A stretch of DNA of 64,000 nucleotides from Aphrocallistes beatrix (taxonomy: Eukaryota; Porifera; Hexactinellida; Sceptrulophora; Aphrocallistidae). How positions within the stretch are numbered: the first letter of the stretch is position 1; every line of letters begins with the position of its first letter. Of this stretch, positions 15,135 through 51,027 are shown piece after piece. Under the pieces are notes generated by a model that had not been told where the DNA came from, did not search any database, and saw only the letters and a program-made list of their open reading frames with translations. The stretch is from the NCBI GenBank assembly GCA_963281255.1, contig OY725500.1:2046001-2110000 (forward strand). Reading direction: 5' to 3'. Both the position numbers and the translations under genes were made by a program.

Positions 15135-15977
15135 GAGGTATTGAAAAGTCGAGAGAGTATGCTCGTTAAGTCCAGAGAGCATGCTCATTAGGTCGAGAGA
15201 GCATGCTCATTAGGTCGAGAGATCATGCTCCTCACATTTCTACATTCTTTATATTCAAAAAAGGTATTTACTGATTTGAATCTACTACATGCGCCCTAGA
15301 TACTATACTTCCCGTACGGAGTGTCACTAAAAATCCTGATGCAAACTTGGTTTAAATTATTTCGAGAAGTTTCATATATGTAATAACTTCCTACTATTAT
15401 AAGTAGGTATGATGCTGGTAACCAATGGAGGAATGGCGGAACTTTCGTCCCCTGAAATGCCCTTTTCGTACCTACTGATTTCTCAATCAAAATGCCTCAT
15501 TTTCACCTTTTTTGTCAAACATACTCCACTCCAGAAGCATCACTTTCCGTTCCTTACATTTTAGTGCCCGTTTATTTTAGTCTCTAATGAGACAAAAATT
15601 CCGGGGACGAAAGTTCCGCCTACCCCAATGGAGTATACCAAGGGCTATTAGCTAATAGAAAACCTATCAATTATGCTGTGGTTTGTAGAAGCCTTTTAAA
15701 AGTTTGTTACTCATATATGGCAGGAGTAATTTACAGTTGAGCAATGGATGTCTCGTACCACAATATAATGCATGTATTATTGACCTCCCTGGGAACTGTA
15801 ATAACATTAGGAATTGAATAAATGTGATGAATTTGTAGAACATCCTATTTAGATCTAACGAGCATGCTCTCTCGACTTAACGAGCATGCTCTCTCGACTT
15901 AACGAGCATGCTCTCTCGACCTAATGAGCATGCTCTCTCGACCTAACGAGCATGCTCTCTCGACTTTTTATTATAAG
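15135..15977. mobile_element. Foldback element 1 (22-bp unit arms)
   Basis: Left arm about 15149-15235: four tandem units of GTCGAGAGAGCATGCTCATT plus 2 bp. Right arm about 15856-15966: five units of the same 22-bp repeat, inverted. Each unit contains the palindrome GAGCATGCTC. The element sits between 8-bp duplications CAAAAAAG (15127-15134 and 15978-15985). Deleting it plus one duplication restores the continuous A-element sequence. No ORF. An 8-bp duplication would be compatible with hAT-, P- or Mutator-like machinery. Confidence 0.85.
15430..15624. mobile_element. 195-bp MITE nested in foldback 1
   Basis: Inverted ends GGAATGGCGGAACTTTCGTC and, inward from the right, GGTAGGCGGAACTTTCGTC. 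Flanked by the exact 8-bp duplication CCAATGGA (15422-15429, 15625-15632). It lies in the spacer of foldback 1, itself inside an A element, so three insertion events can be ordered here. Confidence 0.8.
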
Positions 15978-16472
15978 CAAAAAAGAGATATCTCTCTATC
16001 TCTGTAAATATAAGTCCAAATTCTTTGTTCTCACTTCCTAATATACTTTTTATGAGTGTACATATATGATTCTTTGATAATAATTGCACTACACCCTATG
16101 GAATGTCAACAAAAACAGAATTTGAGACACTGTATCTCAAAAGCTAGAAATGAGAATCAAAAACGGTTTGGAATGTGTCAGTATTTCTTGATGGAGATAC
16201 CTCTCCTTAACATCTCTTATAGCTCTACTTTCATCGTAAGCTGTAAGCCAAATCATATGTTGTTTCGAGGGCGGTATCCTTAAGTTAGACCCATTAATTA
16301 TATTATTATATATGTGTTAATTCATAGCTTACTGTATATAAGGCCTCACAGTAACTTGCGGATTTGGGACTAAGGATGAGGTAGAAGATGGTTGAGCTAA
16401 TAAATGAAGTGCCTTAAATCTTTAGCAAAGCACAATAAAGCTTAGGAATGTATTACCAGCATATATAAATAT

Positions 16473-17085
16473 GGTGTCAAGTACCCATATCCGTTGTTAA
16501 AATTTAGATTAGTCACCATATGCTTGCGCAATAGGTTATATTTGTGACAAATTTGGTGATTTTCAGAGATCAGTTCTAAAGGTTTTTATCATAAAATTTC
16601 TCGCATAGAACTGAGATGTGAATGGGGTAATACGATAAATGTTGCTACATTCCAGTGTTGCTATAGAAACGTGTTTTGGTAAGTTGAGGTCATATCTTGA
16701 AAACCACAAGAGCTAGACATTCATATGCAATTCTATTTGATGGCCAATAGACTATTTCCTATTAAGTGATAGTATAATTTATTAGTCTAAATTCAATTGT
16801 TTACGGATTATTAGACAATTTATCATATTGGTCGCATTTGGTAATTTGTCAAATATCTCTTAAACAATTGAATATAGACGTGGAAATTATATTATCGCTT
16901 AATAGGAAGTAGTCTATTCGCTATCAAATGGAATTACATTTTAACGTCTAGCTATCGTTGTTTTCAAGATAACTCCAACTGACCAAAACACGTTTCCATA
17001 GCTACACTGGAATGTAGCAACATTCCATGAAATCATTCTACATTTTTTGTATTAACCCATTCACATCTCAACGCAAATTACATTA
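16473..17085. repeat. Family E repeat, long inverted repeat without ORF
   Basis: Two inverted arms. Left about 16590-16800 includes CATTCCAGTGTTGCTATAGA and ACGTGTTTTGGT; right about 16860-17060 includes ACCAAAACACGTTTCCATAG and ACTGGAATGTAGCAAC. The outer-left unpaired part (GTACCCATATCCG) recurs at 8970 and 35280. Related copies: 8425, 34710 and 40540. Confidence 0.7.
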
Positions 17086-17136
17086 GCAAAGCAGCATACA
17101 GTTTCATTATCTGATAATCAAGCATTATATTTCAAA

Positions 17137-18241
17137 ATGAACTTTTTGAAACTTATAATGAATTCATTGCAACCTAACATAGACATTTATAATAATAAAA
17201 TCATATTACAAGAAAATATTGCAAGTCTGTTAGAATCTATCCTTAAGCAGATACAATTTCTTCTAAGAAAGCCTAGCCGCGAATTGTTGGAAGAAAATGA
17301 ATCCTATGATGATTTCTTCAACTGCTTTCCTGCATTACTTGAAAGTTTTAGGTAATCCAATCAAATAAATATATTGTTGCATTTCTCTGTTGATCACACG
17401 CATTGTAATTCACTACAAATTCCAGGAACTTTGTTAGACAACAGTTCAATTTTATTCTAAACTTAATTCTAAGTGTACCAAGTTATGAATGTCTTTAATG
17501 TGCACTCTAATCCTTTAAAAAATGTAGTTCAATCTTAAGGATACAATTGATAATTACATATTCTTTATTTAGGATTCCTCAATATCATGATGAAAATAGC
17601 GAAACTCAAAGCAAGTGTATTAACTTAACCCTAAACACCATAGATTATCTCCTGGACTTTAGTAATGGCGTGTCAACACATAACATGCTATGGTTTTGTG
17701 ATAATATCCTCAAAAGAGTTAACAGTGTTGCTCTTCAATCAGGGCCGGCGACAGAATTTACGGGCCCCCTAGTAAGATTTCTGGCCGGGCCCCTCCATCT
17801 CTTACCCGCTTCTCTTGACGTTTTTGCGCACCTGATTTATGAACGTAGGACATAGACTTTATATTGAAATATTTAATAATTGAAATAGAGCAATTTCTAT
17901 AATTCCATATTTTATATCGTGGTGAAGGAATCAGATTAATAATAAGGTTTCAAACAATGGAATAAATTATTGACAATTTATTAATGACAGAATCCTTTGC
18001 TTGCTAAGTGTGATATTGATCATAGCAATCATTCTATTAGTGAAAACTGAAACAAAGGAATTCATATTGTGATACAAGCTTATTATGTACATACAAGACA
18101 CAATTACAATGGACATCTTAAATCCTAAAGAAACTATTAAATGCCGACCTGGGGCCCCTATTTACCACGGACCCCCGGTTTTACCCCAAGCTACCCCTCC
18201 CCTGTCGCCGGCCCTGTCTTCAATATGCTTCTTCGAAATAA
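17137..18241 (+). CDS. Two-exon gene of unknown function, 3' coding end hit by a hAT MITE
   Basis: Exon 1 (17137-17351) starts MNFLKLIMNSLQPNIDIY and ends at AG|GTAATC. The intron is 17352-17572 (221 nt, ends TTTATTTAG). Exon 2 (17573 on) continues in frame with RIPQYHDENSETQSKCINL. The frame stays open across the join with no stop. Without the MITE at 17740-18216 and one duplication, it would end four codons after the insertion site at TAA 18239-18241 (about 130 residues). As it stands it reads about 38 codons into the MITE and stops at 17853-17855. The protein is helical and leucine-rich with no motif I recognise. The frame stays open upstream of the ATG to about 17060, so an earlier exon is possible. 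A candidate later exon is listed at 18547. Confidence 0.55.
17740..18216. mobile_element. 477-bp hAT MITE inserted in an exon
   Basis: Inverted termini CAGGGCCGGCGACAG and CTGTCGCCGGCCCTG are exact, with exact 8-bp duplications TCTTCAAT at 17732-17739 and 18217-18224. GC-rich ends, AT-rich middle, no transposase. The perfect duplication suggests a fairly recent insertion. Confidence 0.9.
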
Positions 18242-18546
18242 ATTACCTGAGATAATTTATACATGACAATGCTTGTAATCTACATGCATTATGCATAATA
18301 AGGTAAGCAATAATTAAGAAATAATATTTGATATAATATCTCATAAATTTTTATCGGAAAACCTAAATTAATGACCTGATTGGAATTTATCTATTTTTTC
18401 CGTGTGGGTTTTGTGTAATAGTCTGGGATATTTGGTACTAAATTATTGGTGAGAAAATAATGAATTTTTACTAAAATTATCCTCAAATCCTAATTCGAAA
18501 TGTATTCTCATCAATTGCTAAATTCAAAATTCTCTTTCTCTTATAG

Positions 18547-18652
18547 GGATCCATATCTATTTAGAAATACAACCTTTTTAATAGATAGATTCCTTAACAA
18601 GAACGAACCATCAATGCGATCCAATATTTTCGATGAAGACTCGGGACACTGA
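18547..18652 (+). CDS. Candidate 3' exon, possibly of the 17.1-kb gene
   Basis: Preceded by a pyrimidine-rich tract ending CTCTTATAG. One frame reads DPYLFRNTTFLIDRFLNKNE and continues to a TGA at 18650-18652. The peptide looks protein-like. No matching in-frame donor was found for exon 2 of the upstream gene (a good AAG|GTAAGC at about 18302 lies after its stop), so the link is uncertain. Confidence 0.3.
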
Positions 18653-18849
18653 GGACATGAGAAGCATTAATTCGCAGAATTGTGAGCAGATATTCTCGAC
18701 TATGAGGTGTATCTTAACTCAAGTAGCTTACATGAGGATTGAAAACATATTCTTCAACGCACATTATTTCCTAGCATCTCTGAATAAAATAAATCAGAAT
18801 TAAACTACATATATTGATTGTTATAAATTCTACAATGCTAAAATAAGCA

Positions 18850-19395
18850 CTAATAGGTGCAATTCTTGCATTTGAAAGCCCCAGAGAAAGAGGTTTCAGG
18901 GAGATCATAGCTTCTGTTATGGTATCAAAACCCACAACCGTTACATTGAACAGTTGAAGTAGCATCATCAACTGATTTTAGATATGAAAATTCTGGTAAA
19001 TTGAAGTCACATATGCAACCAATCGTATATAGATGTGGCAGTGGGATTTTGCCAGTACGTTCCACGGGTTTGGGAAGGAAATGGGCCTCATTTCTTTCTG
19101 ATTCCAAGTGAGATATACTGGATCATCTCCCACTGCTATTGCAGTGGCAACTGCTTTCTATAATATCCCACAGTATGTTATACCAGTCTGTTTCTGAACT
19201 CTTTGCACCACAATCTCTAGCTGCATACTATTGCCAGTATATAAAAATACCAGTTGGGATCTAAGTACATTGTTGTTCCACCATGGAATATCGAATCATA
19301 CAAATTCACACCACCTGCCATCATAATTAGAACAGACCCAGTGGTTCTTCTTTGTGAAGTGAATCTGAGCGCTTGGGAGATCATGTGCCACTTTC
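18850..19395 (-). pseudogene. Ulp1-like cysteine protease with C-terminal PHD-like finger, degraded
   Basis: Read on the minus strand, pieces in shifting frames give HWVCSNYDG, LYDSIFHGGTTMYLDPNW, VVQRVQKQTGITYCGIL, then AVATAIAVGDDPVYL. This matches the C48/Ulp1-like fold: catalytic His in H-W, Asp in Y-D-S, and Cys in the Gln-x-Gln-x-G-x-x-D-C-G motif (Cys kept, preceding Asp now Tyr). A frameshift follows at about 19100, then FPKPVERTGKIPLPHLYTIG and VQCNGCGF-stop-YHNRSYDL and FKCKNCTY. The last part has C-x2-C...H-x2...C-x2-C spacing like a PHD finger, with TGA where Trp usually stands. Several stops and frameshifts make it a pseudogene. Such protease-PHD proteins occur in transposon-rich invertebrate genomes; origin here is unknown. 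Confidence 0.55.
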
Positions 19396-19580
19396 TTAAA
19401 ACAGAGATTCTAGAATAGTATGAATAATCAATACTTTTGCAATATTTACCTAATATTTAGTGCACCCAGCTAAAACTATTACAAATAATAATTTCTAATA
19501 GTAGTTGTACAAGAAAATTTATACATGCGAAAGAATGCAACAAACCATCAAGTAAGAGGTGTTATCTAGTTTTGCATAAC

Positions 19581-20028
19581 TCAGCTCGAATCTTTTAACA
19601 GGCAGGATGAATTTGAAGGAGTTGAAACCGATGGTTTTCGTTTCTTAGGAGTGCTTGTAGTCATGTTATTCTTTGAGTTACTCTTGTAGCCATAAAATTC
19701 TTCGAAACCATTATATTGGATATAAGAATATACAATATCGATAAGGTGTATTTTAGTAATCGGATTATCTTTTGGTTTAGAAACGCACACAGAAGGCACA
19801 TCTGTCAGCCACCAAGCTTGCTTTAAGTTTTCAATTCCCCAAAGGTTTGTGAAGCGCCGTATTAAGAAATATTCATTATTCTACAATAACATAATCAAAA
19901 AATAATTCAGAAAGAAGTACTTGCCTATAGAATGATGGACCAACCAAGACACATTTCTCCACAATATATGCATCGTATATCCTACTAGGTTTCCTTTCAG
20001 TAATTCTAGCATCTGTTCTTCGTACCAT
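19581..20028 (-). CDS. Small two-exon gene of unknown function (135 residues)
   Basis: Exon 1 runs 20028-19921 from an ATG in good context (ACCATGG). It reads MVRRTDARITERKPSRIYDA and ends SFYRQ. A 40-nt intron (GTACTT...TTGTAG, 19920-19881) joins in phase 0 to exon 2 (19880-19581), which begins NNEYFLIRRFTNLWGIENL and ends at TGA. The C-terminal 30 residues are Ser/Thr/Lys-rich with PKKRKP, a possible nuclear localisation signal. Without the intron both frames break quickly, which supports the model. No family recognised. It lies just upstream, on the same strand, of the protease pseudogene at 19395 and may belong to the same element. Confidence 0.5.
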
Positions 20029-20144
20029 GGTAGATCAATTTCCTGATTATTTGTATTATGAGAAAAACTGTCCAATATCGTATCTTTTTGTGCAGATATC
20101 AAACCGCGGAATTTTTCCGGGGCAAAGGCTGTCAGAGTACCTTT

Positions 20145-21655
20145 CCAAGTCATCTGAGAGAAACACTAGTTTGAAGAAATGGACAATCGGTTGTAGAAAT
20201 TTAAGATCTATTGTCGGATGGATGCACAATAACTTAAAGAGACACTCGATTTGAGAAATGGACTGTGAATTGAAGACATATATGCTCAATTCAGCGAATT
20301 AGTGCACAATAGCAAAATGAAACGGACGTTAAAGAAACTAATACTCAATTCTACGATTATTTGTTCAAGTGGGGTAATGGGGCCATAAATAATTGGCTAA
20401 TTTGCGAATTGTTGGACAATACCAGAAAAGTTTTCTCGATTGTAGAAATATAAGATCTATTGGGTCGATGGGTTCACAATTGCTGAAGGAGACACTCGTT
20501 TGAAGAATTCGACACTGAAATGTAGAAATTTATGAGCTATTGTGAGATGAGACACTCGACTGGCAAAATGGACACTCAATTGAAGAAATATGTTTATTTG
20601 GGAAATGGATGTACAATTGAATAAAGAGACAAGGGATTTGGGAAATTGACACTCCTTTGAAGGATTAGAAGTTCGATTGGGGAGAAAGGTCGACAACAGC
20701 GGAAAGCGATAGTCAATTGGATAAATTGACGCTGAATTGATGGAATATATGTTATTTTCGGAGGATAGGTGCACAAATAGAGAAATAGACACTCAATTGT
20801 TTAAATATATGTTCATTTGGGGAGATGGGTGACAATTGTTGAAATAGACACTAGTTCGAACAAATCGACACTCAATTAAAGATATATTTGTTCTATTAGG
20901 CATTGGATGCACTATAGCAAAAAGAGCTGCTCGATTGGATAAAAAGACAAACAATCAAAGAAACATATGTTCTATTGGGGAGATGGGATATAATTTTCAG
21001 AATGAGACACTCGACTGGCGAAATGAACCCTGAATTGAAGAAATGTATGTTCTATTGGGACATTGGATACACAATTGGAGAAAGAGAAAAGCGTTTGGAG
21101 AAATTGACACCCCATTGAAGGACTAGATGTTCGATTGGGGAAAGGGGTGCACAAAAGTGGAAAGAAATAATCGATTGGATAAATGGATGTGAATTGACGA
21201 AATTTATGGTATATTCGTGGAATATACCATAAATTTCGCATTCGATTGGAAAACGACACTCAATAGGAGAGAGATATGATCAATTTGGTGAATTACTGCA
21301 CAATAGCGAAAAACTCGTTTGAAGAAATGGGCACTTAATTGTAGAAATATATGATCTATTGGGAAGATGGGTTCTCAATAGTTTAAATAAACACTGCTCT
21401 TTAAAGATTTCTACTCAATTGTAGAATTATTTGTTTTGTTGGGATGATAGGTGCACAATGGCAGAAAGAGGCACTCGTTTCAAATGGACACTCAATTTAA
21501 GAAATGTATATTCTATTAGGCGAATAAGTGCACAATAACTGAGAAAAAACTAGTTTGAAGAAATTGACACTCAATTGTAGAAGTGTTTTTTCTTTTATTA
21601 TGGTGATGTGGATATAATAGGAGAAAGAAACACTCGTTTGAAAGAAAGGCATTTT
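20145..21655. repeat. Diverged minisatellite of ~80-bp units, about 18-19 copies
   Basis: Recurring words in fixed order: GACACTCGTTTGAAGAAATG, GACACTCAATTGTAGAAAT, ATGTTCTATTGGGGAGATGG, GTGCACAATAGC. The GTGCACAAT word recurs at intervals mostly of 75-83 bp from 20225 to about 21610. All units share one orientation and are strongly diverged. Minus-strand ORFs here are repeat translations (SxxFxxRVS, FxxSVHF) and probably not genes. The right edge meets a truncated B element. Confidence 0.8.
21198..21238. repeat. Perfect 19-bp stem hairpin inside the minisatellite
   Basis: CGAAATTTATGGTATATTC, then three bases, then its exact reverse complement. Only one unit shows it, so it is a local change rather than part of the repeat consensus. 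Confidence 0.75.
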
Positions 21656-26854: not shown

Positions 26855-29239
26855 ATGTCTTCTTCTGAGAGTTCAGCTAAAAAGCCTAAGTTTGCACAGC
26901 CGATATTAAGCCATTTTCTCCAAGCACAATCAAGTCTATCAACACTCACTTCACCTGACTGCGATCCAGGTTCTCAGTCCCCTGAGAGCCCAAATGAATG
27001 TATTACCCTCTTACAACAGGAATCTGCAGAACAACACCAAATTACGCCACAACCACCAGTCTAAGTCGGACAAGATTTTAACCCATATCTAGTAGATTAA
27101 GAAACACATTGTCATGGCAATCAGAAGTTTAATAAAGCTTGGTTTGCTGAAATTCCCTGGCTACGTTACGATACAAATTTGGATTTGTGCTGGTGCGTTT
27201 GTGTCTGGGGTTTGAATGCTGACATGTTACCAGCTAGTGAGAACAAACACAGGTTTGCAGAGAGCAGCTTTATCACTGGATGGAATAATTGGCATGGTGG
27301 TAAGTCGAAGCTTCTGAAACATACAGGAGCTGATGCCGGTACGCTTAAGCATAATGTACATCATTATTTGGCAGATGTCAAGGCTGCTCACGAGAATCAA
27401 CTAACGATTAGGGCCCAAGTAAGCAGCACGAAGAAACGGTTAATGCAAAGGAATAGGATTGACCTTGATGCTGTTATTTCTAGCATACAACTCTTGGCTA
27501 GACAAGGAATGCCGCTACGAGGCCATGGCAAAGAAAAAGATACAGCAAATATCTGGCAGGAAGTTAAACTAATTTCAAATTTCAATGAGGATGTAAAATC
27601 ATACTTTAATTCGTCTGGATTCAAGTTTATGTCGGTACCAATACAGAATGAGTGTCACAAGATGTTAGGTGATAGTGTACTGGATATAATTGTTGAGAAG
27701 ATCAAGAGGTCCGTTTGGTTTACATGTATCATGGATGAGACTCAAGACATCTCAACCCTTGAGCAAGTTTGCATCTGTATGAGATATGTAGACGATTCAG
27801 ATCTTAGTGTGCGGGGAGATTTTTTAGGATTTCATAACATAGTTGGTACTACAGCAGTATAACTCTACAAGATACTTACCAAGACGATAAAAACTCTTGG
27901 TCTTGACATGGAGAATTGCCGAGGTCAGGCATACGATGGGGCCTCAAATGTTTCTGGTCATGTTTCTGGTTTGCAAACATTAGTTAGGAATCATCATCCA
28001 AAAGCCCTGTATTCCCACTGCGCTGGCCATAATCTTAATTTAGTGCTGAATGATGTTGCAAAGGAAGTTCGCCAGTGTTATCATATCGTGACTCTCGTAG
28101 GTAAGATCGGGATATATGTGAAGGATTCAGCGAAAAGAAAAGCATATTTCGATCAGATACGAGTTGCAAACTCAGAAAACGGTAAGATAAGCAACTCAAA
28201 TATCCGTCCCATATGTCCAACAAGATGGATTCTAAGATACCCTGCAGTCAATGCTATTTTAGAAAATTACGAGGATCTTCTTGACTTCCTGTGCTCCTCA
28301 ATTGATAACGAAAACAAGGCTCAAGGATATGTTAGAGAACTTCAACGCTTTGAAGTCTATTTTGGAGTACGCATTCTACATCGTATCTTTGGTCAAGTTC
28401 ACCCAGTTCACAATGCAATCCAATCAGAATCTATGTTACTGGGGGAGTGTTCAAGTATAGTAACTGCACTCACTGCTGCATTGAGAATAGACGGAGAATC
28501 TGTGGACATTTTTAGCGTTTTCATGACTAGCTGTAAGTCTTCGGCATTGGCTATGGGTATTGATTTGCCTGTAGTTCCTCGAGGCCTCGCGAAAATGGTG
28601 AATAGAGGAAATAAGGTTGAATGGGAAATTGATGACATCGTTGTCAATAACTATTATCATGGTATTTGGACAAAGATGTATAGCTCTTTAGTAGGTTCGC
28701 TGACAAAGCGTTTTCAAGGAAAGGCAATTGACATTGCACGGGATTTTCAAGACATTTTGTGGAATATGAGCGAAGATTCGATTTATGAATTCTCTAGCAT
28801 GAACTCGCTCATGGAGCTCTACAATACTGACATTAATTGGAAACTGTTGAAGTTGGAGATGATACAATGGGATCGTGTTAGTAAGATATCCAACCCTAAC
28901 AAACACACGACTGATATGAAGTACCTTCACAAGTATATTTCTGAGAAGTCTGATCATCGTCTAATGTGGCCTAATTTGGTGTTATTTCTTAAGCTCTACC
29001 TTCTTCTTCCTTGTACATCTTGCTCTGCCGAACGTGGATTTAGCTGCTTAAGACGAATAAAAACACATCTGCTCGGCACAATGACAGAAGACAGACTAAA
29101 TGCATGTGCATTATGCAATGTACATCATGAAATATTGGACAAATTGGATATTGGCAAAATTACTGACGGTTGGATTAAGATGAGTGAGGTCAGGATAAAT
29201 AGATTTGTACTAAGTAAAGACAGCTTAAGGGATTACTAG
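26855..29239 (+). pseudogene. hAT transposase (TTF-type finger, RNase H-like core, dimerisation tail)
   Basis: All pieces share one frame from MSSSESSAKKPKFAQP to the stop at 29237-29239, interrupted only by TAA at 27062, TAA near 27098 and TAA at 27860. The order is typical: low-complexity N-terminus; TTF-type zinc finger (KAWFAEIPWLRYD, CWCVCVWG, then KLLKHTGAD in place of the usual H-x5-H end); the MDETQDISTLEQ segment with the first catalytic Asp; ENCRGQAYDGASNVSG with the second; CAGHNLNLVLNDVAKE; CPTRWILR; and the C-terminal dimerisation region CSAERGFSCLRRIKTHLLG. About 795 codons in total, in the usual range. No frameshift. The many stop-free codons suggest loss of function was recent. 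The closest family is the ZMYM1 / 52-kDa-repressor-like hAT group. Confidence 0.9.
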
Positions 29240-34709: not shown

Positions 34710-35294
34710 ATCGATGTTTGATACAAAATTTGATTCTACACTATCCAAAACCTAAGAATTCCAAATTGCAAAAAGAACAACCCATGCATACTCGAGCATA
34801 AGCAGAAAGTTGGGACAGGGTGGGCGCCCCCCTCCCAGCTTTCAAATCTTGGGAGGCGGCCCCCCCCAGATTTGGAAATTGAAAACCGGTTTGTTTAATT
34901 TGTGATTTTGAGATCTTAACGACACTTGACCATAATTTTATTCACAACAATTTCGGCTGCCAAAATGAATAACATGATTGTTATTGTGTCACCTCGATTT
35001 TATGTCATCACTTTTAATTGAGTTGTATAATATTCATCCTTAGAATAGCTACCCATGAGGTGTTATAATGTACTACATCATTTGTGATTAATCTTGTAGC
35101 AAAATTCCATCAAAAAAATTCCAAATTTTTCGTATTAACCATTAACATCTCAGTTTTATGCGAAAAAAATTATAATAAAAGCGCTTAGAAGTGCCCCTAA
35201 ACGGCCTCTGAAAATTACCCAATTTGTCACAAATATAACCTATTGCGCAATCATATGTTGACTAATCTAAATTTTAACGACGGATATGGGTACT
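34710..35294. repeat. Family E repeat, partial, with hAT-end-like GC-rich patch
   Basis: E-family blocks ACATCTCAGTTTTATGCG, CAAATATAACCTATTGCGCA and ACGACGGATATGGGTACT at the right. A GC-rich patch at 34815-34890 (GGGCGCCCCCCTCCCAGC ... GGAGGCGGCCCCCCCCAG) resembles hAT termini but lacks a partner. Confidence 0.5.
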
Positions 35295-36000
35295 GTGACG
35301 AATGCAATTGATCGACTTTTAGGGTCTGCAATTGATTGGCTTTTAAGGTCTGCAATTGATCGACTTATCTGAGGTTTTCAATTAATCGACTTTTCTAAGG
35401 TTTGCAATTTCTTCCTTGCAGGCATGCTAGGTGTTGTGAGGATTGCAGCATACACTTGGAAAAATGTCCAATATGCAGATCTACAATAGTTCAAAGATTC
35501 CAAATATTTCCATAAATATTTCGGTTACTTCTTCATTGTTCACTGTTTTCCCATTTGATTACCTAATTTTCTTCATTTATTTATTCATAGCTATCTCCAC
35601 TCTGATCAATTAAACTACTCTTAAACTAATCTGAATTTTCTTTTATTCACTAACATTCATGACTGAAATTCTTAGAACTTTTTAAAAATTTCTCCTTATA
35701 ATTCTGAGAATTTGACTTAAGTCAAATTCTAAGAAAATGCTTAAATTCTAAGAAAATTTCTTTCTATGAATTCCACAGCAATTCTTAGAATGACACATAC
35801 TAATAGAAATTCTAAGATCTTAAGTCAAAGAGACCCTCAATATCTTTGAAAATGTCAATCAATTACCAACTTGAACAAGTCGATCAATTGAAAACTTTGA
35901 TAAAGTCGATCAATTGCAAACTTTGAAAAAGTCGATCAATTGAAAACTTGAAAAAGTCGATCAATTGCAAACCTTAAGAGTCGATCAATTGACGCGTCCC
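35295..36000. mobile_element. Foldback element 2 (24-26 bp unit arms)
   Basis: Left arm (35303-35408) has four units of TGCAATTGATCGACTTTTAG plus 4-6 bp. Right arm (35857-35992) has five to six units of GTCGATCAATTGCAAACTTT, the inverse. Spacer about 450 bp with an exact palindrome GAATTTGACTTAAGTCAAAT (plus TC) near 35707-35728. The left neighbour is an E repeat and the right neighbour is hAT sequence, so no target duplication can be read. No ORF. Confidence 0.8.
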
Positions 36001-36002
36001 CC

Positions 36003-36214
36003 CTGCAAGTTCGTTTAGCATGTTACGTAGGATCCACACATATTTACGAAGCAGTCAGACTCAACAGAGGCTGAACCATTGCGCAATCTTGTATGCACAC
36101 AGGGATATCGTTCGTACAATGGAACTTGATTCTCTGACAGATGAATTTGTCGATAAAACAGTATACTATAGAAAGAACATTTTCGGGCCAGCACTTAATC
36201 AATCACTTGTCTGA
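36003..36214 (+). pseudogene. hAT transposase, C-terminal dimerisation fragment
   Basis: The frame ending at 36214 reads ASSFSMLRRIHTYLRSSQTQ, then RLNHCAILYAHRDI and ELDSLTDEFVDK. This matches the hAT C-terminal dimerisation region (S-F-S-x-L-R-R-I-K-T-Y-L-R-S). It is probably the 3' end of the element whose TTF finger is at 32217-33000, with the catalytic core lost and repeats inserted between. Confidence 0.75.
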
Positions 36215-36639
36215 GTATACACAGCTTCTTCATCATTTCGTCCCACTCAATTATTGCTTTAATTAGATTGTGTTTTTCATAACATATTAATTACCTGACT
36301 ATCAACATAGTATTACTTAATTAAAAAACTAATTGATTCAAATATAATATACAGGAGCCAAAAAATTTATACTAGTTTGTGAGTGGATCGCCTCCCCAGA
36401 TATTATGGATTTTTGACAAAACTTTCCGCCTATGTACTCGAGTAATGCTGTTGTTAGCCTGAGTGATCATGCAACTTTGAAACCGTTTATTTTTACACCA
36501 AATTTTACTTGTCGCTTAGTTTCTACTCGTAGAATATAGAAGTCAGCATAATATAATATACAAGTTATCCTAATAGGATGCATTAGATGATTTCATGCAA
36601 CAATAGCGGGTTTTTTAAAAATCCTTATCCAAGACTAGC
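36215..36639. other. No recognised feature
   Basis: AT-rich spacer, possibly 3' hAT flank. No TIR partner found. Confidence 0.35.
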
Positions 36640-39205: not shown

Positions 39206-39545
39206 GTAAAGTGTTTTTCCATGCAGATAGTTCTAACTATGATCTCTACGATCGTACCCATTAACCTAGTTGTAAAAAGGAATTCCCAAAGGACAGCGTA
39301 TTATGTCTCTCCATGGTGACTATGTCCTGCCGTCATGGTATTTGTAATCGAATTAAAATATTGACTTCAGGCGAATCTATAGTAATTGTATTTAACATTT
39401 TAATAAGTCATTTTGCTCAACTACCCAGATACATTATACTTAAGTAGTATATAATAATTGCTTGTTTAATTGGGTAATAATTTTCGTAATTAACTACTTT
39501 TCTGTCACATTGATTTAATCATGTTGTCTGGTCAACAATATGTCC
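39206..39545. other. No recognised feature
   Basis: Spacer of near-average composition without ORF or repeat terminus. Confidence 0.35.
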
Positions 39546-40475
39546 CTTTAGAGGGCATTTAGGGGACGGGACGGGTTAAGATGCCTAATTTACGGGACGG
39601 AACGGGACCACCCTGGAAAATCTAGGTACCTAATTTACGGGACGGGACGAGTCAAGATGCCTAATTTAAGGGACGAGACAGAAAAGGTACCTAATTTACG
39701 GGACGGGACGAGTTAAGATGCCTAATTTACGGGACGGGACGAGTTAAGATGCCTAATTTACGGGACGGGACGAGTCAAGCTGCCTAATTTACGGGATGGG
39801 ACGAGTAATTATACAGTCGAGTCGATTCAAGGCATTGTGACATCGATTTATCGCGAAAGCTGCTTAAATCTCCAGAAATAGAATCAGGGGCGGTCACAAG
39901 AATTTTCTAAACCGGGGCAAGCGGAGAAACAAACTCGGGAAATTCTGCTTAATCATTCTGCTTAATCATTAATAATTCTGCTTAACCGGAACAAAGTATC
40001 ACGACCCAATGTGTTCTGACTAAGCGGATTCATTGTACCCGAATAATTATATAGTGCATAACTATATCGTGAATTGTAGAATAAATATTGATATAATGAA
40101 TTACATAGTACATAGTTAATAGAATATACGTAGTCTAATGAATAATGGAATAACTAAGTGTCACAATACACTGAATCGACTCGACTGTATAGTGAGGTAT
40201 TTTTGTCCCGTCTCGCAAATTAAGTACTGACAAAGTTTTCCGGAATGATTCTGTCCCGTCCCGGATATTAGGCATCTTAACCTGTCCCGTCCCGGAGATT
40301 AGGTATCCTGCTCGTCCCGTCCCGTAAATTAGGCATATTGACTAGTCCCGTCCCAGAGATTTGGTACCTAGATTTTCCGGGATGGTCCCATCCCGGCCCG
40401 TAAATTAGGCATCTGGACCCGTCCCGTCCCGTAAATTAGGCATCTTAACTCGTCCCGTCCCGTAAATTAGGCATG
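39546..40475. mobile_element. Foldback element 3 (31-bp unit arms)
   Basis: Left arm (about 39562-39805) has about eight units of GGGACGGGACGAGTTAAGAT followed by GCCTAATTTAC. Right arm (about 40200-40475) has about eight to nine inverted units (GTCCCGTCCCGTAAATTAGG, CATCTTAACTC). Some units are variant (AATCTAGGTACC), and the variant lies in corresponding positions of both arms. The whole centre is a pogo-type MITE, so without it the arms would almost touch. No ORF and no clear target duplication. Confidence 0.85.
39814..40187. mobile_element. 374-bp pogo-type MITE in the centre of foldback 3
   Basis: TA-flanked termini CAGTCGAGTCGATTCAAGGC and CAGTCGAGTCGATTCAGTGT (inward from the right). 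The inner sequence has GCTTAATCATTCTGCTTAAT phrases like the P2 MITE. Confidence 0.8.
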
Positions 40476-40539
40476 CCCCCCTTTTGAGATCCTACCGAAT
40501 TTCTGAAGTGTACTTTCTTTATAGAGATTCTATTCAAAT

Positions 40540-41400: not shown

Positions 41401-41440
41401 AGGACATAGGAGCCAAGTTATGGAAAATAGAACAAAACTA

Positions 41441-44393: not shown

Positions 44394-44449
44394 CCCCCCT
44401 CCACTACACCCTTGAGTAGGAGGGATGTGTTTGGGCATTGTTAGGGAAA

Positions 44450-44610: not shown

Positions 44611-44739
44611 CCCAATTAGTAAGCTACACATTCTAATTACTCATCATTGATAGCCTCAACTTAATTACTAAATCCCAAGTTAATAAATATCAACACTTGA
44701 TACTTGATGATACTTGTCCCAAGTCACAGCCATTTTAGA

Positions 44740-44960
44740 TTCTGGCGATTAGTGACACAAAGTGGCAGAGGTTGATAATTTTCTACAAAAGAATAAGTAA
44801 TTGAGTTGAGACTCTCAATTATGAGTAATTAAAATGTGTAGATTACGAATTTGAAATAAAAATTTTGAGTACGTACATGTTCCTTTTTGAATAGATCCAA
44901 TTTAATACTATTTGAATAGAGGTTTTGGTAGTGGTCGAACACTTTTGTTCGGGTAGTGTG
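44740..44960. mobile_element. Tc1-type MITE, right half
   Basis: Related to 33717-34191: AGTAATTGAGTTGAGACTCT, TGTGTAGATTACGAATTTGA and a right end ACACTTTTGTTCGGGTAGTG followed by TGTA. The left terminus is not identified. Confidence 0.55.
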
Positions 44961-45138
44961 TAGGCTACTCACATCTGAGTATATTTCAACTTTTTGACCA
45001 TACCTGTTAACAGAACCTTAATATATGCCTGACTTTGAGATACCGACCAGGGGTAATATTTGATGAAATTTCTGGAGAAATGTTAGGATCTGAAAAGACA
45101 TGTGGAGGAGGTAGAAGCTGAATTATTTTGATCATGGA

Positions 45139-46330
45139 TTGATCTACTTGATAATGAATGAGATGGTTAAGGTGATCGATCGCGTATTGGAGAATTCTTC
45201 TTCTCTTCCAACCACCATTCTGGCTCGCTTCCCATTCTCACTAACCCAACATATCAGCTGGTTACTCCAGATTTTATTCCTGTCGTCTCCCAAACCTGGT
45301 GTTTCGTTCCATCCTCTCTCTCTCGCATTCTCGCATCCCTACTCGAGTTACCAACCGTTCTCATATCCCTATTCTATCCACTCGAAATCCATCTAACATC
45401 ACCTCCATCAAACCTCAGCGTAGCGTCTCTATAAACTACTCACATTATCTTTCTTTCTATCTTCTTAATGCTCGCAATCTTAGAACGAAGTCTACTCGCT
45501 TTCTCGATTTTGTTCCTGACTATCAACTTGACATTTTTGCCATCACTGAGACCTGGTTTAGGTCGAGGGATGCAGCTTCAAGAGCAGAATGCACCGTCGG
45601 GTTATATTTTCTTTGATCATCCGAGGTCTACACGACGTCAGGGTGGCAGTACAGCAATACTATACCGAGATAGCATAACAGTTAAGTACAATTCTTCTGG
45701 AGACCTTCTTTAGAATTCTCTGGATGGAGTCTTTTTATAAAAATATATACCTGCGTATCATTATAACCTACAGACCTCCTTTCTCCAAAATCCATCTCTC
45801 TATCTACTTTCCTATTTCGAACCTATCATCATATCAAAGGACCAACTAATCATATCAAGGGACTTCAATATCCTTATTGGTGTTCATCCGACTCCATCTA
45901 ATTCTCTGAGCTCCTACAATCTAAGTCTCTTGTTTAGCATGTTATCCAACCAACTCATTTAAAAGGCATTATTGATCTTGTTATAGCTCATTCATTGGAT
46001 AACATCATTTTCTCTGAACTTGAAGTCAAGGAACTATTCTCTGATCATGTGTGTTCAATTGTTCATTTATGTAACTCTGCATCACTCAATTCTGTCTCGC
46101 AGAGAACTTGATGCAAGAGGTTTGCTACATTCAAGTTCTGTGAAAGGTATCATTCAGTAAGGGTCTCTCCAGCAGCCTTAACAGTATCAGTATATATATT
46201 AATATAATACTGTTCGATCAGTTCTTCAGTAGTTTCGCAGTACTACGAATTCTACTACGAGGAATCTTCGGCAAATCTATTCCAAGTTTATTGGTACTGG
46301 TCAACTTTATTTCACGATATATTGCACGAG
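45139..46330 (+). pseudogene. LINE (non-LTR retrotransposon) endonuclease remnant
   Basis: 45430-45710 in alternating frames reads YLLNARNLRTKSTRFLDFVP, YQLDIFAITETWF and RRQGGSTAILYRDSI. These are the N-A-R-S-L and ITETW motifs of APE-type endonucleases, where Asn and Glu bind metal. Further on, ISRDFNILIGVHP (the G-D-F-N motif, Gly now Arg) and SDHVCSIV-like sequence at about 46040 carry the remaining catalytic Asp-Asn and Asp-His positions. Frames shift at least three times. Upstream sequence is Ser/Pro-rich. The reverse transcriptase is not found downstream. CR1/jockey-like by motif, subfamily unresolved. Confidence 0.7.
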
Positions 46331-46559
46331 CATTTTCTTCGCATCACGCATCATCTGCAAATGTTGTAGTTAGAAATTCAATTCATTTCTTTACTTCAAA
46401 TGGCATTACTTTTTGCCCTTGACACCTGACATGAATTGGGTAAATAATCTTCAAAATATGATGAAATACTCGACAACAAAAATAAGTTGTGAACTTTTCC
46501 AACGTACCAAGGTGTATTTCAGCTTCTTACCGAGCCTTCCTAGGTTTCCCATATCTTCC

Positions 46560-47205
46560 TTTGTTGCCTCCATAAAATTTAATAAACTTCCATAGTTTTC
46601 AAGGAAGTGCAGTAAGACGCATTACCTAACGTGTGGGGCATAACGGACGAATATTCATAGTACTATTGTTGTCAGGATCTTCCGAAACAAAACTCATGAA
46701 AATACCAAAGCGTTTAGGTGATGATCTAACAAAATTAATGATAGCATTCATGTGCTCTAAGGCCTTCTTGGCTATAGGGTTAATTGCACTGCATGCGTCT
46801 TGCAACACAAAATTCAGATTGTGACCAGCACAATATAGATATAAGGCCTTCCGATTTCTTCCATTATAAGTCTCTGTAAACCTCTATGAATGCTGCTCAT
46901 ATTCGCTGCACCATCATTGATTTGGCCACGGAGGTTTAAAATAGAAAATAGAAAGGCCAATACGGAATAACACATATTTTAAGATCTCGAGTAAAGTAGA
47001 GGCATTAGTAACGGTAGTTTTGTAGAAGCCGAGAAAGATATCCGTTGTCTCAAAGTCGTCGGAGCAGTAACGTAAGCAGATGCTTCCTATTGGGAAATTA
47101 TTGTAATATATTACCTGTGTTAGAACATACAAAATTACTTGCTCACATCTCGTTATGCCACTCGTTTCATCCATAATATTTGAATACATATATAGTACTG
47201 TGTTT
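46560..47205 (-). pseudogene. Third hAT transposase, internal fragment
   Basis: Minus-strand pieces: SNIMDETSGITRCEQVILYV (47189 on), DIFLGFYKTTVTNASTLLEI, then in another frame NDGAANMSSIHRGLQRL, AGHNLNFVLQDACSAINPIA and NIRPLCPTR-stop. These align in order with the intact hAT at 26855 (MDETQDIS, DGASNVSG, AGHNLNLVLNDV, CPTRW), with stop TAA at the Trp side. Both ends are missing. It is a different, older hAT than the complete one. Confidence 0.75.
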
Positions 47206-47370
47206 CATGCCCAAGGATGCTTATATTTCGTTTTGTATTTCAGGAAACATGAATTTTAACATGCGATTATCAGTAATGTATTAATTAACGTCAGTATTGA
47301 ATCTAAAAAACACGCATATTGGAGGTTAAGTATGATAGGGATAATTATAATTAGTTAAAACTTATATATA

Positions 47371-47816
47371 CAGTCGAACCTGCTGTAACGGCCACTCTGT
47401 ATAACGGTCACCTGTCTATAGCGGTGACCATTGAACAGTCCCGTCCGAAATTCTATAATATTGACCCTGTGTATAGCGGTCACCTGCTCAACGCGGCCAG
47501 CGGCCACCCATTTGCAGTCCCTTACTGGCCCAAAAACTGTGTATAACGGCCACTACCTGTCTATAATGGTCACTACCTGTCTATAACGACCATCACCTTT
47601 TTCACCTTTTTATGTGTTTATGACAGGACCTGTTACGAACGATTAACAAGTTTCATTATATTACTTCAAGTAATAGATTTCTAAAAACTTGATATTCATT
47701 TCACTACGTTGATACCTTTTGAGGATTAAGACAATCACCTGTATATAACGGCCACCTGTGTATAACGGCCAATTTTGTCCAGTCCCTTGGGTGGCCGTTA
47801 TATATAGGTTCCACTG
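47371..47816. mobile_element. 446-bp pogo-type MITE (P3)
   Basis: TA-flanked; starts CAGTCGAACCTGCTGTAACG and ends GGTTCCACTG. The phrase GTATAACGGCCACCTGT recurs several times within both ends. A second copy is at 55333-55713. Confidence 0.85.
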
Positions 47817-47893
47817 TAGTTTTGTAATGTACCTTCCAATTAAACGTGTTATAACCCATAGATTACCATAATCTTTCTCGTTACCATGTCTTC

Positions 47894-48447
47894 TTAAGGG
47901 TGGTGTTTCCTTCCAGAACTAACTTTAAAGATTTTCATTATTTTATCCTGAATTTTTTGGTGGAAACTATTCTCGATGAGTTATGTGCAAAAATACATTT
48001 TTTGGAACTTAAGAAGCAAGAAAAAAATTTTTGTCCTCAAATCACCTAATTTATAGAGGACATTCAAGGAAACTTCAATGGCTTATGTCTCTTTTACTCA
48101 ATTATTCTTGTATGAAATCGTTGAATAAAGAAAATAATAGGAATATAATTTTGAATTTTAACCTAAATAATTTTTTCTTTCAAATTTCGTTGATGCAATA
48201 TTTAGAGGCAGATTTTCAAAGAAAAAATATTTTAACTTTCTTCTAAAGTAGAATTTCGAAAATCTGTCCCTATCATTTTGTTCAACGTGACGAGATCTTT
48301 CCAAAACCATCGAGTTTTTTACTCTACGACTTTTGTAACTAGAGATTCCTCCGTTGTAAAATTGATTTTTTTGAGTGCTAAAAACAGGCTACAAAGCAAT
48401 TTTCTTCGGAAAGGCTTGATTTCCAATAGTTTTTACTGTGTCCTAGT
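47894..48447. mobile_element. Family B element, left end
   Basis: Starts TTAAGGGTGGTGTTTCCTTC. Runs in the inverse direction relative to 2576-3800 (AACTAACTTTAAAGATTTTC) and stops abruptly where family A sequence begins. Confidence 0.75.
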
Positions 48448-48650
48448 CTTAAGATGTGCTAGCGGAAAACGAAAAAAACTGATTTTGAGACACTGTATCT
48501 CAAAAACTAGAAATGAGAATCAAAAACAGTTTGGAATGTGCAAGTATTTCTTGACGGAGAAACCTGCCCACGCTTAACATCTCTTATAGCTCTACTTTCA
48601 TCGTATGCTGTAAGCCAAATCATATGTTTTTTCGAGGGCGGTATCCTTAA
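48448..48650. mobile_element. Family A element, right end
   Basis: From TTAAGATGTGCTAGCGGAAA to the terminus TTCGAGGGCGGTATCCTTAA. Together with the preceding B piece it makes a unit with a B left end and an A right end, both bounded by TTAA. Confidence 0.75.
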
Positions 48651-48842
48651 GGATATTATTTCACTATGATTGCTTATTTAACGAGGCTTCTCATTCTTAT
48701 TGATACATGTAAGTTTATAAACATTTATTCAAATTATAGAGGCGAATAATATTACATATTGGGTGCTCGGATTTTAAGAATGAAATGTTCGGAATTAGCG
48801 AGGGTTCGGATTGGCGAGTTTCGGACTATCGAAGGGGTAGTG
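48651..48842. mobile_element. Pogo-type MITE (P1 family), left-truncated at TTAA
   Basis: Continues GGATATTATTTCACTATGAT as in the P1 copy at 4196, starting exactly at the internal TTAA of P1. It ends GGGGTAGTG followed by TA. The A/B composite probably inserted at this TTAA. Confidence 0.7.
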
Positions 48843-49079
48843 TACCATAATTGCACTACGTATTTTATTAGTTAGCTTGTATCTGGCTTCAGGGGAACGC
48901 ACCTTCAATGTTTTGAAGCAAGTTAAAAATTACTGCCGTTCAACTATGGGATAAGGAATTTTAAATGGGCTGACCATGCTTAATAACAATTATACCTCAT
49001 TAATTTATTCATTCACATAGAAAAAGGCGAGAAAGCATTTACCAATTAAAGTTGGTTTGTTTGTATTCACAATTTTTAT

Positions 49080-50305
49080 GAAATTAAAAAAGCAAAAGTA
49101 TACCAAAATCCACAGATTTCCTTGTGCACCCTAACCACGAATATTTTGAGATAATTGTGAATAATAATTCATATCCATAGCACTACGAAGTATAATCCAT
49201 CATTTTAGAATGAATAAAGAGTTCCAAAAAGTATATTAGGAAGTTAGAGCAAAAGTCTACGACTTTTAGTTTCCAAGTTAGGATTTTCGAAAAATGCTAC
49301 GTCATCATATGACAAAATTCTAAAACTTAAAATTCCATAGGATATAGTGCAATTATTATCAATGAATCGTATATGTACCCTAATTAAAATCATATTAGGG
49401 ATTGAGAATTAAGAATTTGGGTTTATTTTTACAGGGATAGAGAAATATCTCTCTTTGGACCCTAAATGGGGGTTTATGACCGAATCTGGGATGTCCAAGG
49501 CCAGAACTTTCAAAATAATTATTAAAAGTTCTCCAATTTTATGTACACATCATTAACGACAATTGTGTTCATTATTTGGCATAATAGTCACATTTGGATA
49601 CATATTTCATGATTAGATTCGCCATTTTCTAATATATTTTAAGTTCTCCACATAGAATTTGTATTACAATTAAGTCAATGATAATTCGTGAAATTATTAC
49701 TTTTTGACAAAGTGATGTTTGAGGAACCTATATATTTTCGCATTTATCCTTTCATTTAAGGCTATAATAGATTATATATCTTCAATAGTTTTTAAGATAT
49801 GACATCGGCCTCTTTCGGGACCATAGAGAGATATTATGCACGAACTTTACGTATAATAAGCTATATCCTAAAATTTTTTTGAATCAATCAGAATATTATT
49901 TCTGATCCAATGATCCTAAATATCCGTTATCAAATAAGCTTTTTCCCGGGCATTATATTAATGAACTTCCTTATAGAGCAATTTTGATTGGATTTTATTT
50001 GGCCTTCTAAATCTTTGTGTTGTATAATCTCCTAAGGGGCCATAACAATGTTAAGCTCCATATCATTAAATAAATATCAAATAAGTTAAAAACTAATTGA
50101 TGAATACATCAAAAACCTCCAATAATTTTTCAATTTTCAGTAACGCTAAACTTTTGGGGTTTAACCCATAAAATATCAAAATAAATACCCTCCAACTAGT
50201 ACTATCAGATGGTAGACCGCTCAGTAATACAATGGAATTAACGATACAAAAGTTTGCCGGGTTTTTTTCACGTCAGCCAAAGTTTTTCGAGGGTGGTATC
50301 CTTAA
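49080..50305. mobile_element. Family A element (first subtype), right terminus present
   Basis: Long inverse-oriented A copy (GATTTCCTTGTGCACCCTAA, GAATTAAGAATTTGGGTTTA, TGGGATGTCCAAGGCCAGAA) ending TTCGAGGGTGGTATCCTTAA. The left terminus is missing. The 237 bp between the P1 MITE and this copy shows nothing. Confidence 0.75.
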
Positions 50306-50375
50306 CTTTTTATAATCGATTTCACTCAAAAATCATAAAATTTGTCAATTATTTATTTTTGATGTGTAATTATGA
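50306..50375. repeat. Family D repeat, tiny inverted remnant
   Basis: TTTATAATCGATTTCACTC, AAAATCATAAAATTTGTCAA and TTTTTGATGTGTAATTATGA correspond to the D segment after the GC-rich cassette. Confidence 0.5.
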
Positions 50376-50509
50376 CTTTTTTTTTCTAAAATCAGCACAA
50401 AAATTCTAAAGTATCCAAATTCATTTTGTTCTGGCCTTTTCTACGAGTATATTGTAAAAGGATCTAGACAAATATGCGAAATTTGAGTTTCTATACGGCT
50501 GATGAAAAA

Positions 50510-51027
50510 GCTGAATAAAACCGAATGGAATAAGGACAAACAATATTCATGACTGGAATAAGTCGAATTGTCAATCCGGAATAAGGCCGAATTAAGTTCA
50601 TGACTAGAATAAGGCCGAATATTCAACACTGGATGGTATAAGTCCGAATTTTCAAAACTGGAATAAGGTCGAATTTTCATTTTGGAACTAGAGTGAGAAT
50701 GGTTTTTAATTTGTGAACTAAAGAATGGAGAGTCGATTGGGAGCATCACTTGGTTTGTTTGGAAACAGGGAGATTTTAAGGATTTTTGACATGGAATATT
50801 TTGAAAATTCGCCTAGTGAGGTGTTTTTAAGCAAAATATATATTCAACTTGTTTGTCACTTATTTATTTCAGTATTACGCACATATCACTCGACTCATCC
50901 AGTTGTGAAAATTCGGCCTTATTCTAGTTATGAATTTAATTCGGCCTTATTCCGGATTGACAATTCAGCCTTATTCCAGTCTCATTTTCGCCCTTATTCC
51001 AGTTTGAAAATTCGGCCTTATTCAGTC
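50510..51027. mobile_element. Foldback element 4 (24-29 bp unit arms)
   Basis: Left arm (50510-50690) has about six units of CTGGAATAAGGCCGAATTTT plus 4-7 bp. Right arm (50904-51027) has about five inverted units (AAAATTCGGCCTTATTCCAG). The spacer of about 210 bp is not repeated and has no ORF. Edges are approximate because no target duplication could be read. ORFs on both strands are repeat translations (IRPYSS periodicity). Confidence 0.8.

What the first reader, a model, noticed from the sequence alone, without database searches (positions are those of the whole stretch)
15135..51027. Four foldback elements with the same architecture but unrelated repeat units
At 15.1, 35.3, 39.5 and 50.5 kb, inverted arms are built from 4-9 tandem copies of a unit of 22, 24-26, 31 and 24-29 bp. 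The spacers are short and have no ORF. The unit sequences (GTCGAGAGAGCATGCTC, GTCGATCAATTGCAAAC, GGGACGGGACGAGTTAAG, GGAATAAGGCCGAATT) show no similarity I can see. Four in 36 kb suggests one mechanism that repeatedly builds such elements, or one transposase tolerant of arm sequence. Foldback/Galileo-type elements with tandem arms are known; a set with a different unit each time in one locus is, to my knowledge, unusual.
Basis: partly seen in the sequence, partly recalled or inferred. Interest (0 to 1): 0.8.

Follow-up and report, generated by a model that had tools for sequence, protein, structure and literature searches.

The report
Foldback jumping genes, mostly Mutator-like
Four odd hairpin-like repeats in one stretch of a eukaryotic genome are short, non-coding copies of four families of jumping genes; two of them trace to Mutator-type transposases, and copies of all four families carry the target-site footprints of real insertions.

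Summary
The window holds exactly four tandem arrays in inverted arms; 20 shuffles give none. Each is one copy of a dispersed family. Copies have defined ends and exact target-site duplications: 8 bp in F1 (26 of 29) and F4 (9 of 11), 8 or 9 bp in F3 (14 of 19) and F2 with F2-like copies (3 of 5). The families are insertions, not assembly artefacts or local duplications; the window copies of F2 and F4 themselves show no duplication.

F4 has a transposase-bearing relative (L094): nearly the same end sequences, a clearly related unit, an 8-bp duplication, and an open 545-codon frame with MULE and RING domains and a FLYWCH match just under its cut-off. F2 copies carry broken pieces of the same kind of gene; the window copy keeps about the last 35 codons of the RING finger. 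Of eight MULE loci examined, five lie between inverted arms with a tandem array, four of them with units of their own. So several diverged transposases, each with its own arms, fit better than one tolerant transposase. F1 and F3 are assigned by architecture, duplication length and (F3) ends only.

Tm1 of Meloidogyne is the published precedent. Unusual: F3 copies of only 57 bp.

The parts
15127..15134 (.). left target-site duplication of element 1 (CAAAAAAG)
15135..15977 (+). element 1 (family F1), 843 bp: caps GAGGTATTGAAAA / CTTATAATAAAAA, arms of 22-bp units (4 left, 5 right)
   Evidence: both caps found, within 3 mismatches each, in 28 of 30 further loci given
15978..15985 (.). right target-site duplication of element 1 (CAAAAAAG)
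35295..36001 (-). element 2 (family F2), 707 bp: caps near GGGGCGCATG (left, decayed) and GGGGACGCG (right), arms of 24-26-bp units; no target-site duplication in this copy, its two flanks belong to different repeats
35405..35515 (+). relic of the transposase 3' end inside element 2: about the last 35 codons of a C3HC4 RING finger and the stop
   Evidence: homologous to the RING of L040 (PF13920)
39544..39552 (.). left 9-bp target-site duplication of element 3 (CCCTTTAGA)
   Evidence: read by eye; the script did not find the left cap of this copy
39553..40478 (+). element 3 (family F3), 926 bp: both ends begin GGGCAT, arms of 31-bp units
   Evidence: right end identical to the family end, left end diverged
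40479..40487 (.). right 9-bp target-site duplication of element 3 (CCCTTTTGA, one mismatch to the left one)
   Evidence: read by eye
50504..51032 (-). element 4 (family F4), 529 bp: caps GAGTTGAC (right) and a decayed GGGAAAGC (left), arms of 24-28-bp units; no target-site duplication in this copy
   Evidence: 9 of the 10 other copies given have an exact 8-bp duplication

Best explanation
The four features are non-autonomous cut-and-paste DNA transposons of four dispersed families, each made of short end caps, an inward-facing tandem array at each end, and a short spacer. SHOWN for all four families: multicopy, defined ends, duplications of 8 or 8-9 bp in other copies. SHOWN for F4 and F2: kinship with FLYWCH-MULE-RING transposons (Mutator superfamily). 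F4 has a transposase-bearing relative with nearly the same ends; F2 copies hold fragments of the gene. INFERRED: F1 and F3 are moved by MULE-type transposases too, their source copies being lost, diverged or not seen. INFERRED mechanism: the transposase (probably by FLYWCH) binds repeated sites in the arms, pairs the ends, cuts at the caps and inserts at an 8-9-bp staggered cut; internal deletion makes short passengers that still move in trans; slippage and unequal exchange change unit number; arms drift with the transposase lineage, so each family ends up with its own unit.
For: Families multicopy: F1 103 matches to one end within 2 mismatches (reversed control 2), F3 730 end matches within 1 mismatch (reversed control 0), F4 133 first-look candidates of which 40 were scored, F2 far fewer, five matches of 350 bases or more, the window copy included. 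Duplications: F1 26 of 29 exact at 8 bp and none at 7, 9 or 10; F4 9 of 11 exact at 8; F3 14 of 19 exact (6 at 8 bp, 8 at 9); F2 and F2-like 3 of 5 exact (2 at 8, 1 at 9); flanks paired across copies rarely match. L094: arms of GGAATAAGACCGAAT units, F4-like ends, exact 8-bp duplication, 545 open codons with MULE 29.1 bits (cut-off 27.6), RING 52.5 bits (27), FLYWCH 21.5 bits (just under 23.6). F2: FLYWCH match in L041 (22.9 bits, just under cut-off), RING in L040 (35.1 bits, over); both score best against the transposase of L116 (38% over 172 aa; RING tail 53% over 38), which lies between inverted arms and has caps like those of F2 (15 of 16). MULE domain: 135 matches in this genome. Five of eight MULE loci lie between inverted arms with a tandem array in at least one arm (L069, L092, L094, L095, L116); 4.6% of the window lies inside such arms, so about 0.4 of eight would be expected. 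F3 caps match those of F2, F4, L092, L094, L095 and L116 at 7-10 of 16, F1 caps at 2-6 of 16.
Against: No MULE gene was seen between F1 or F3 arms. Three of 56 F1 places and three of 40 F3 places lie within 12 kb of a MULE hit (3.8 to 11 kb); only the F1 place at 3.8 kb was read (L069), where the F1 array is a separate insertion. The place lists were truncated and the distance check used 133 of the 135 MULE matches, so this is an incomplete search. The F1 unit and caps resemble none of the others, and an 8-bp duplication is also made by other superfamilies (hAT, P; recalled). Of the eight MULE loci, L096 shows no flanking arms, L091 a tandem array on one side only, L093 141-bp units with the left arm at the edge of the fetched stretch. 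The eight loci were not a random sample, and L069 is a MULE of another type (no FLYWCH or RING match). The window copies of F2 and F4 lack duplications. L116 shows no duplication at the ends I took, L069 only an ambiguous 7-bp one.
Confidence: 0.8

Rival explanations
1. F1 and F3, or F1 alone, belong to another superfamily with 8-bp duplications (P/Galileo-like or hAT) and only converge on the foldback shape; the window then holds foldbacks of two or more superfamilies.
For: No MULE partner seen for F1 or F3; F1 caps and unit unlike the others. Different transposases do sit in foldback arms: Tm1 discussion, PMC3169594 section 11 part 1 read.
Against: F3 duplications vary between 8 and 9 bp as in F2 and F2-like copies, within the 8-11 bp given for MULEs (PMC6446971, passages), and its caps group loosely with the MULE set. 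F1 has asymmetric caps outside the inverted part, as Tm1, F4 and L094 do. The few long F1 copies read hold no hAT or P gene by eye; one holds a mariner-type frame, taken as a nested insertion (mariner duplicates TA, recalled). No family search was run on F1 or F3 interiors.
Confidence: 0.27
2. Local origin: tandem duplication plus inversion, or assembly artefact, with no transposition.
For: The window copies of F2 and F4 have no duplication.
Against: Same ends and spacers at many loci on many contigs with exact duplications of a fixed length.
Confidence: 0.02
3. A single transposase mobilises all four families and tolerates any arm.
For: Same architecture; the first 16 bases of F2 and F4 elements resemble those of L116 (13 and 12 of 16).
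Against: F4 and F2 trace to transposase lineages 25% identical over 162 aa and 30% over 74 aa, with different arms; other MULE loci have other units; F1 caps share 2-6 of 16 with the rest.
Confidence: 0.07

Closest known systems
Tm1 (Mutator/Foldback family of Meloidogyne; PMC3169594: abstract, section 6, section 11 part 1 and passages read)
   Same: Composite inverted ends with a variable number of tandem units, short asymmetric motifs outside the inverted part, MITE-like copies, FLYWCH + MULE transposase in the full-length element.
   Different: Unit about 14 bp against 20-39 bp here; 9-bp duplications against mainly 8; no C-terminal RING reported in what I read; one family there, four here plus four further MULE-bearing ones.
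Phantom group of Mutator-like elements (PMC6446971, passages and table rows read)
   Same: MULE domain, FLYWCH in some members, duplications 8-10 bp, inverted ends from 18 to 613 bp, animals.
   Different: RING is not listed for Phantom in the rows I saw; clade membership not tested, no reference sequences at hand.
Ghost (PMC6446971, section 5 read)
   Same: MULE transposase accompanied by a RING finger, invertebrates.
   Different: RING in a separate frame, no inverted ends or duplications identified in the arthropod elements.
Galileo (PMC3688188, abstract and outline read)
   Same: Long inverted ends with internal tandem repeats that hold several transposase-binding sites; the best precedent for what the arms do.
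   Different: P-superfamily transposase with THAP domain; here MULE-type for F2 and F4.
Tetris/DAIBAM (PMC4079207, abstract and outline read)
   Same: Foldback element and a miniature element sharing the outer parts of the inverted ends.
   Different: About 220-bp units; described there as apparently non-autonomous.

Membership tests
Foldback-type elements (architecture only) | Inverted ends built of tandem units | tested here: met
Foldback-type elements (architecture only) | Mobile: defined ends and target-site duplications | tested here: met
   exact in F1 26 of 29, F2 and F2-like 3 of 5, F3 14 of 19, F4 9 of 11; the window copies of F2 and F4 are among the misses
Mutator-like (MULE) superfamily: F4 | MULE-domain transposase in an element with the same ends | tested here: met
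   L094: ends 15 of 16 alike
Mutator-like (MULE) superfamily: F2 | MULE-domain transposase in an element with the same ends | tested here: inconclusive
   Fragments of the FLYWCH and RING parts sit inside F2 copies and score best against the MULE protein of L116; no F2 copy with the MULE domain itself was seen
Mutator-like (MULE) superfamily: F1, F3 | MULE-domain transposase in an element with the same ends | tested here: inconclusive
   None seen; place lists truncated, neighbours of 3 F1 and 3 F3 places mostly not read
Mutator-like (MULE) superfamily | Target-site duplication of 8-11 bp | tested here: met
   range from PMC6446971 passages
Phantom | N-terminal FLYWCH plus MULE | tested here: inconclusive
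   L094: MULE over its cut-off; FLYWCH 21.5 bits, just under its cut-off of 23.6
Phantom | Groups with Phantom in a transposase tree | not testable with these tools
   no reference Phantom sequences in the collections
Galileo / P superfamily | P-type transposase with THAP domain | tested here: not met
   For F4 and F2: the Pfam matches are FLYWCH, MULE and RING-type fingers only. Not tested for F1 and F3

The most novel reading that the evidence does not exclude
One genome holds many lineages of foldback Mutator transposons, each with a tandem array of its own, and one family (F3) moves as a 57-bp hairpin with a single unit per side. That would make long arrays dispensable for mobility and the 57-bp copies among the smallest mobile cut-and-paste elements. 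Support: 22 distinct places hold a 57-bp form within 3 mismatches, 9 of them identical; of nine 57/62-bp copies read, the flanks fall into 5 distinct sites, each with an 8-9-bp duplication of at most one mismatch in at least one copy, and the identical 57-mer occurs at two of these sites. A further part, that end caps change more slowly than arrays, is open: caps 15 of 16 against units 25 of 37 for F2-L116, but 13 of 16 against 40 of 47 for F4-L094.
Probability: 0.33. Interest if true: 0.55.

Novelty: new member of a known kind. Interest (0 to 1): 0.36.

Why it matters
It turns a puzzling set of hairpin repeats into related transposon lineages, each with its own array, inside one genome. Because F4 has a relative with an open transposase frame and nearly the same ends, and F3 has copies from 57 bp to over 1 kb, the question of what the tandem arms of foldback elements are for can be tested directly: bind the same protein to cap alone, cap plus one unit and full arm.

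Tried and rejected
Looked for a MULE gene near family places by distance, 133 of the 135 MULE matches against 56 F1, 22 F2, 40 F3 and 40 F4 places. Within 12 kb: F1 three, F2 three, F3 three, F4 one. Read of these: the F1 place at 3.8 kb (L069; the MULE there has arms of another unit, the F1 array beside it is a separate insertion) and the F2 place at 2.6 kb (L091). A listed F3 end at C4:5145158 also lies beside a MULE match; not read. Long F1 copies as source elements, judged by eye from their frames: C2:1649060-1651240 holds a mariner-type frame, L011 a palindromic insert, L070 an inverted repeat with a frame that reminded me of a peptidase (not searched) around a withheld stretch, left alone. 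The inverted pair of L091 (251-438 / 4069-4260) was first read as arms; dropped, because it looks like a common interspersed repeat (by eye). Tried to show that all units share one ancestor: only F4-L094 is beyond doubt; L094-L116 0.0095, F2-F4 0.0275, F4-L116 0.0335, F2-L116 0.0375 of shuffles; 36 pairs, no correction, so these are leads. The end comparison (F2-L116 13 of 16, 0.0001; F4-L116 12 of 16, 0.0003; F4-L095 11 of 16, 0.003; F3 against F2, F4, L092 and L116 9 of 16, about 0.04) covers the cap and the first bases of the array together, and I set the ends of L095 and L116 by eye after seeing the likeness.

Rows dropped before counts. F1 rows are the window copy, 29 of the 39 other scored candidates, and L070. 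F1 2 of 31 given lacked both caps (L013, L070); F2 4 of 9 (L040, L042, L043, L057); F3 10 of 29 (the window copy, L072, L089, and the seven 57-bp copies, which a length filter of the script shut out; one search counts these). Four F1 rows (L014, L017, L018, L019) share one flank, so by site it is 23 of 26. F1 misses: L010 and L026 show the duplication shifted by 4 bases, L033 has one mismatch. F4 misses: the window copy and L086 (9 bp, one mismatch); 11 of 18 exact, 4 with one mismatch, L107 with two, L111 and L112 none; these 18 were picked as facing end pairs in the truncated list. The host organism was not identified. One search for MULE, FLYWCH, RING finger and transposase together found one paper of the held library, so absence in print is not claimed.
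Full report
WHAT IS THERE. The window is G000:C14:2046001-2110000 of a 100.5-Mb genome in 28 contigs. Tandem Repeats Finder places arrays at all four sites. A scan for tandem arrays that overlap inverted repeats returns these four places and no other in the window, and none in 20 dinucleotide-preserving shuffles.

FAMILIES, NOT ONE-OFFS. I call them F1 (15.1 kb), F2 (35.3 kb), F3 (39.5 kb), F4 (50.5 kb). Searching the genome: F1, exact 17-mer unit 160 + 240 matches, reversed control 0, and 103 matches to one end within 2 mismatches, control 2; F3, 730 matches to its end within one mismatch, control 0; F4, 133 first-look candidates, 40 scored; F2, five matches of 350 bases or more, the window copy included. 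Matches are not copies: a copy has up to two ends and many units. Counts of DNA searches are lower bounds by the tool's own statement.

ENDS AND DUPLICATIONS. F1 copies begin GAGGTATTGAAAA and end, read inward, CTTATAATAAAAA, outside the array. F2 ends are GGGGACGCG and GGGGCGCATG; F3 has GGGCATGCC at both ends; F4 has GAGTTGAC and GGGAAAGC. Direct comparison of flanks: F1 26 of 29 exact at 8 bp, none at 7, 9 or 10; F4 9 of 11 exact at 8; F3 6 of 19 exact at 8 and 8 of 19 at 9; F2 with F2-like copies 2 of 5 at 8 and 1 of 5 at 9. Flanks paired across different copies match within one mismatch in 12 of 812 (F1, 8 bp; 12 is what the four loci that share one flank would give) and in 0 or 1 cases for the other families at 8 and 9 bp. 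In the window, element 1 has an exact duplication (CAAAAAAG), element 3 a 9-bp one with one mismatch (by eye), elements 2 and 4 none. Element 2 is flanked on its two sides by different repeats, so that site has probably been rearranged.

THE TRANSPOSASE. The MULE domain (PF10551) gives 135 matches in the genome. L094 (C1:9737500-9743000) has arms of the unit TGGAATAAGACCGAATTATTAAGAC, closely like the F4 unit (none of 2,000 shuffles as good), ends GGGAAACATGAATAAG and GGGTTGACTGAATAAG (best pair 15 of 16 positions against F4), an exact 8-bp duplication, and between the arms an open frame of 545 codons with FLYWCH (21.5 bits, cut-off 23.6), MULE (29.1, cut-off 27.6) and RING (52.5, cut-off 27). 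F4 copies are thus best read as deletion derivatives of a near relative of L094.

F2 IS A BROKEN VERSION OF THE SAME KIND. L041, an F2 copy with an exact 8-bp duplication, carries the FLYWCH-like start of the gene (22.9 bits, under the cut-off of 23.6); L040 carries the RING end (35.1 bits); the window copy keeps only about the last 35 codons. These parts score best against the transposase of L116 (38% over 172 aa; 53% over 38 aa of the RING tail), then L092. L116 itself sits between inverted arms with a 25-31-bp unit.

OTHER MULES IN THIS GENOME. I examined eight MULE loci, chosen for open frames or for lying near family hits. Five lie between inverted arms with a tandem array in at least one arm: L069 (39 bp), L092 (20-23 bp), L094 (25 bp), L095 (24-27 bp), L116 (25-31 bp). 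L093 has 141-bp units with its left arm at the edge of the stretch, L091 an array on one side, L096 none. L069 is of another MULE type, without FLYWCH or RING matches. In the window 4.6% of positions lie inside such arms; on that yardstick five of eight has a chance near 1e-5, which is rough because the loci were not random. L092 shows an 8-bp duplication (gtagtatt), L095 one with a single mismatch, L116 none, all by eye.

WHY THE UNITS DIFFER. The transposases of L092, L094, L095 and L116 are about 28-46% identical to one another in the aligned parts, so their arms have had long to diverge. Whether caps are more stable than arrays is open: for F2 against L116 the caps agree at 15 of 16 and the units at 25 of 37; for F4 against L094 13 of 16 and 40 of 47. 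The caps of F2, F3, F4, L092, L094, L095 and L116 agree with one another at 7 to 15 of 16; those of F1 and L069 agree with the rest at 2 to 6 of 16. That is weak support for placing F3 with the MULE set and none for F1.

HOW IT LIKELY WORKS. Galileo's THAP domain binds several sites in its tandem arms (PMC3688188, abstract). By analogy the FLYWCH finger of these transposases may bind the units, which would explain why the arms persist and why each lineage has its own. This step is inference. Against a strict need for many units: F3 exists as 57-bp copies with one unit per side, at 22 places within 3 mismatches. Of 18 short F3 copies (57-220 bp) read, 15 have duplications with at most one mismatch; by flank they fall into 14 distinct sites, and the nine copies of 57 or 62 bp into 5. 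The identical 57-mer stands at two of these sites, which speaks for movement in that form; collapse of longer copies after insertion is not excluded.

PLACE AMONG KNOWN ELEMENTS. Tm1 of Meloidogyne has the same plan (PMC3169594). Phantom elements share FLYWCH and MULE. A RING finger is on record beside a MULE transposase in Ghost and in one Phytophthora element (PMC6446971). So the kind is known; what is added is a set of lineages with separate arrays in one genome, a RING fused behind the MULE domain, and very short F3 copies.

Noticed in passing
27101-29239: hAT-type transposase relic in two frames (DUF4371, Dimer_Tnp_hAT).
   Followed up: no
59695-60548: mariner-type transposase fragments (Transposase_1 in the second, 60129-60548).
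   Followed up: no
52856-54124: retrotransposon pol-like fragments (Integrase_H2C2 in 53612-54124, the rest by eye).
   Followed up: no
16693-16971: Palindrome with 136-nt arms, 81% complementary, 7 nt between; not tandem; another kind of inverted element beside element 1.
   Followed up: no
15435-15620: A smaller inverted pair (22 nt, 142 nt apart) inside the spacer of element 1, with a similar stretch inside an F2-like element at L057 (by eye); perhaps a nested short transposon that spread with F1.
   Followed up: partly
L069:5733-6253: An F1 copy made almost wholly of units in alternating orientation, without a spacer.
   Followed up: partly
L070:1-3301: F1 copy of 3.1 kb enclosing a long inverted repeat with mirrored frames and a withheld middle.
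   Followed up: no
L099, L101, L102, L103, L104: Five of the nine 57/62-bp F3 copies read share one flanking sequence, so one insertion was probably copied later with its host repeat.
   Followed up: yes
35097-35299 and 36009-36434: The two flanks of element 2 belong to different repeats; the outer repeat is seen at L065-L067 with other sequence in between.
   Followed up: partly
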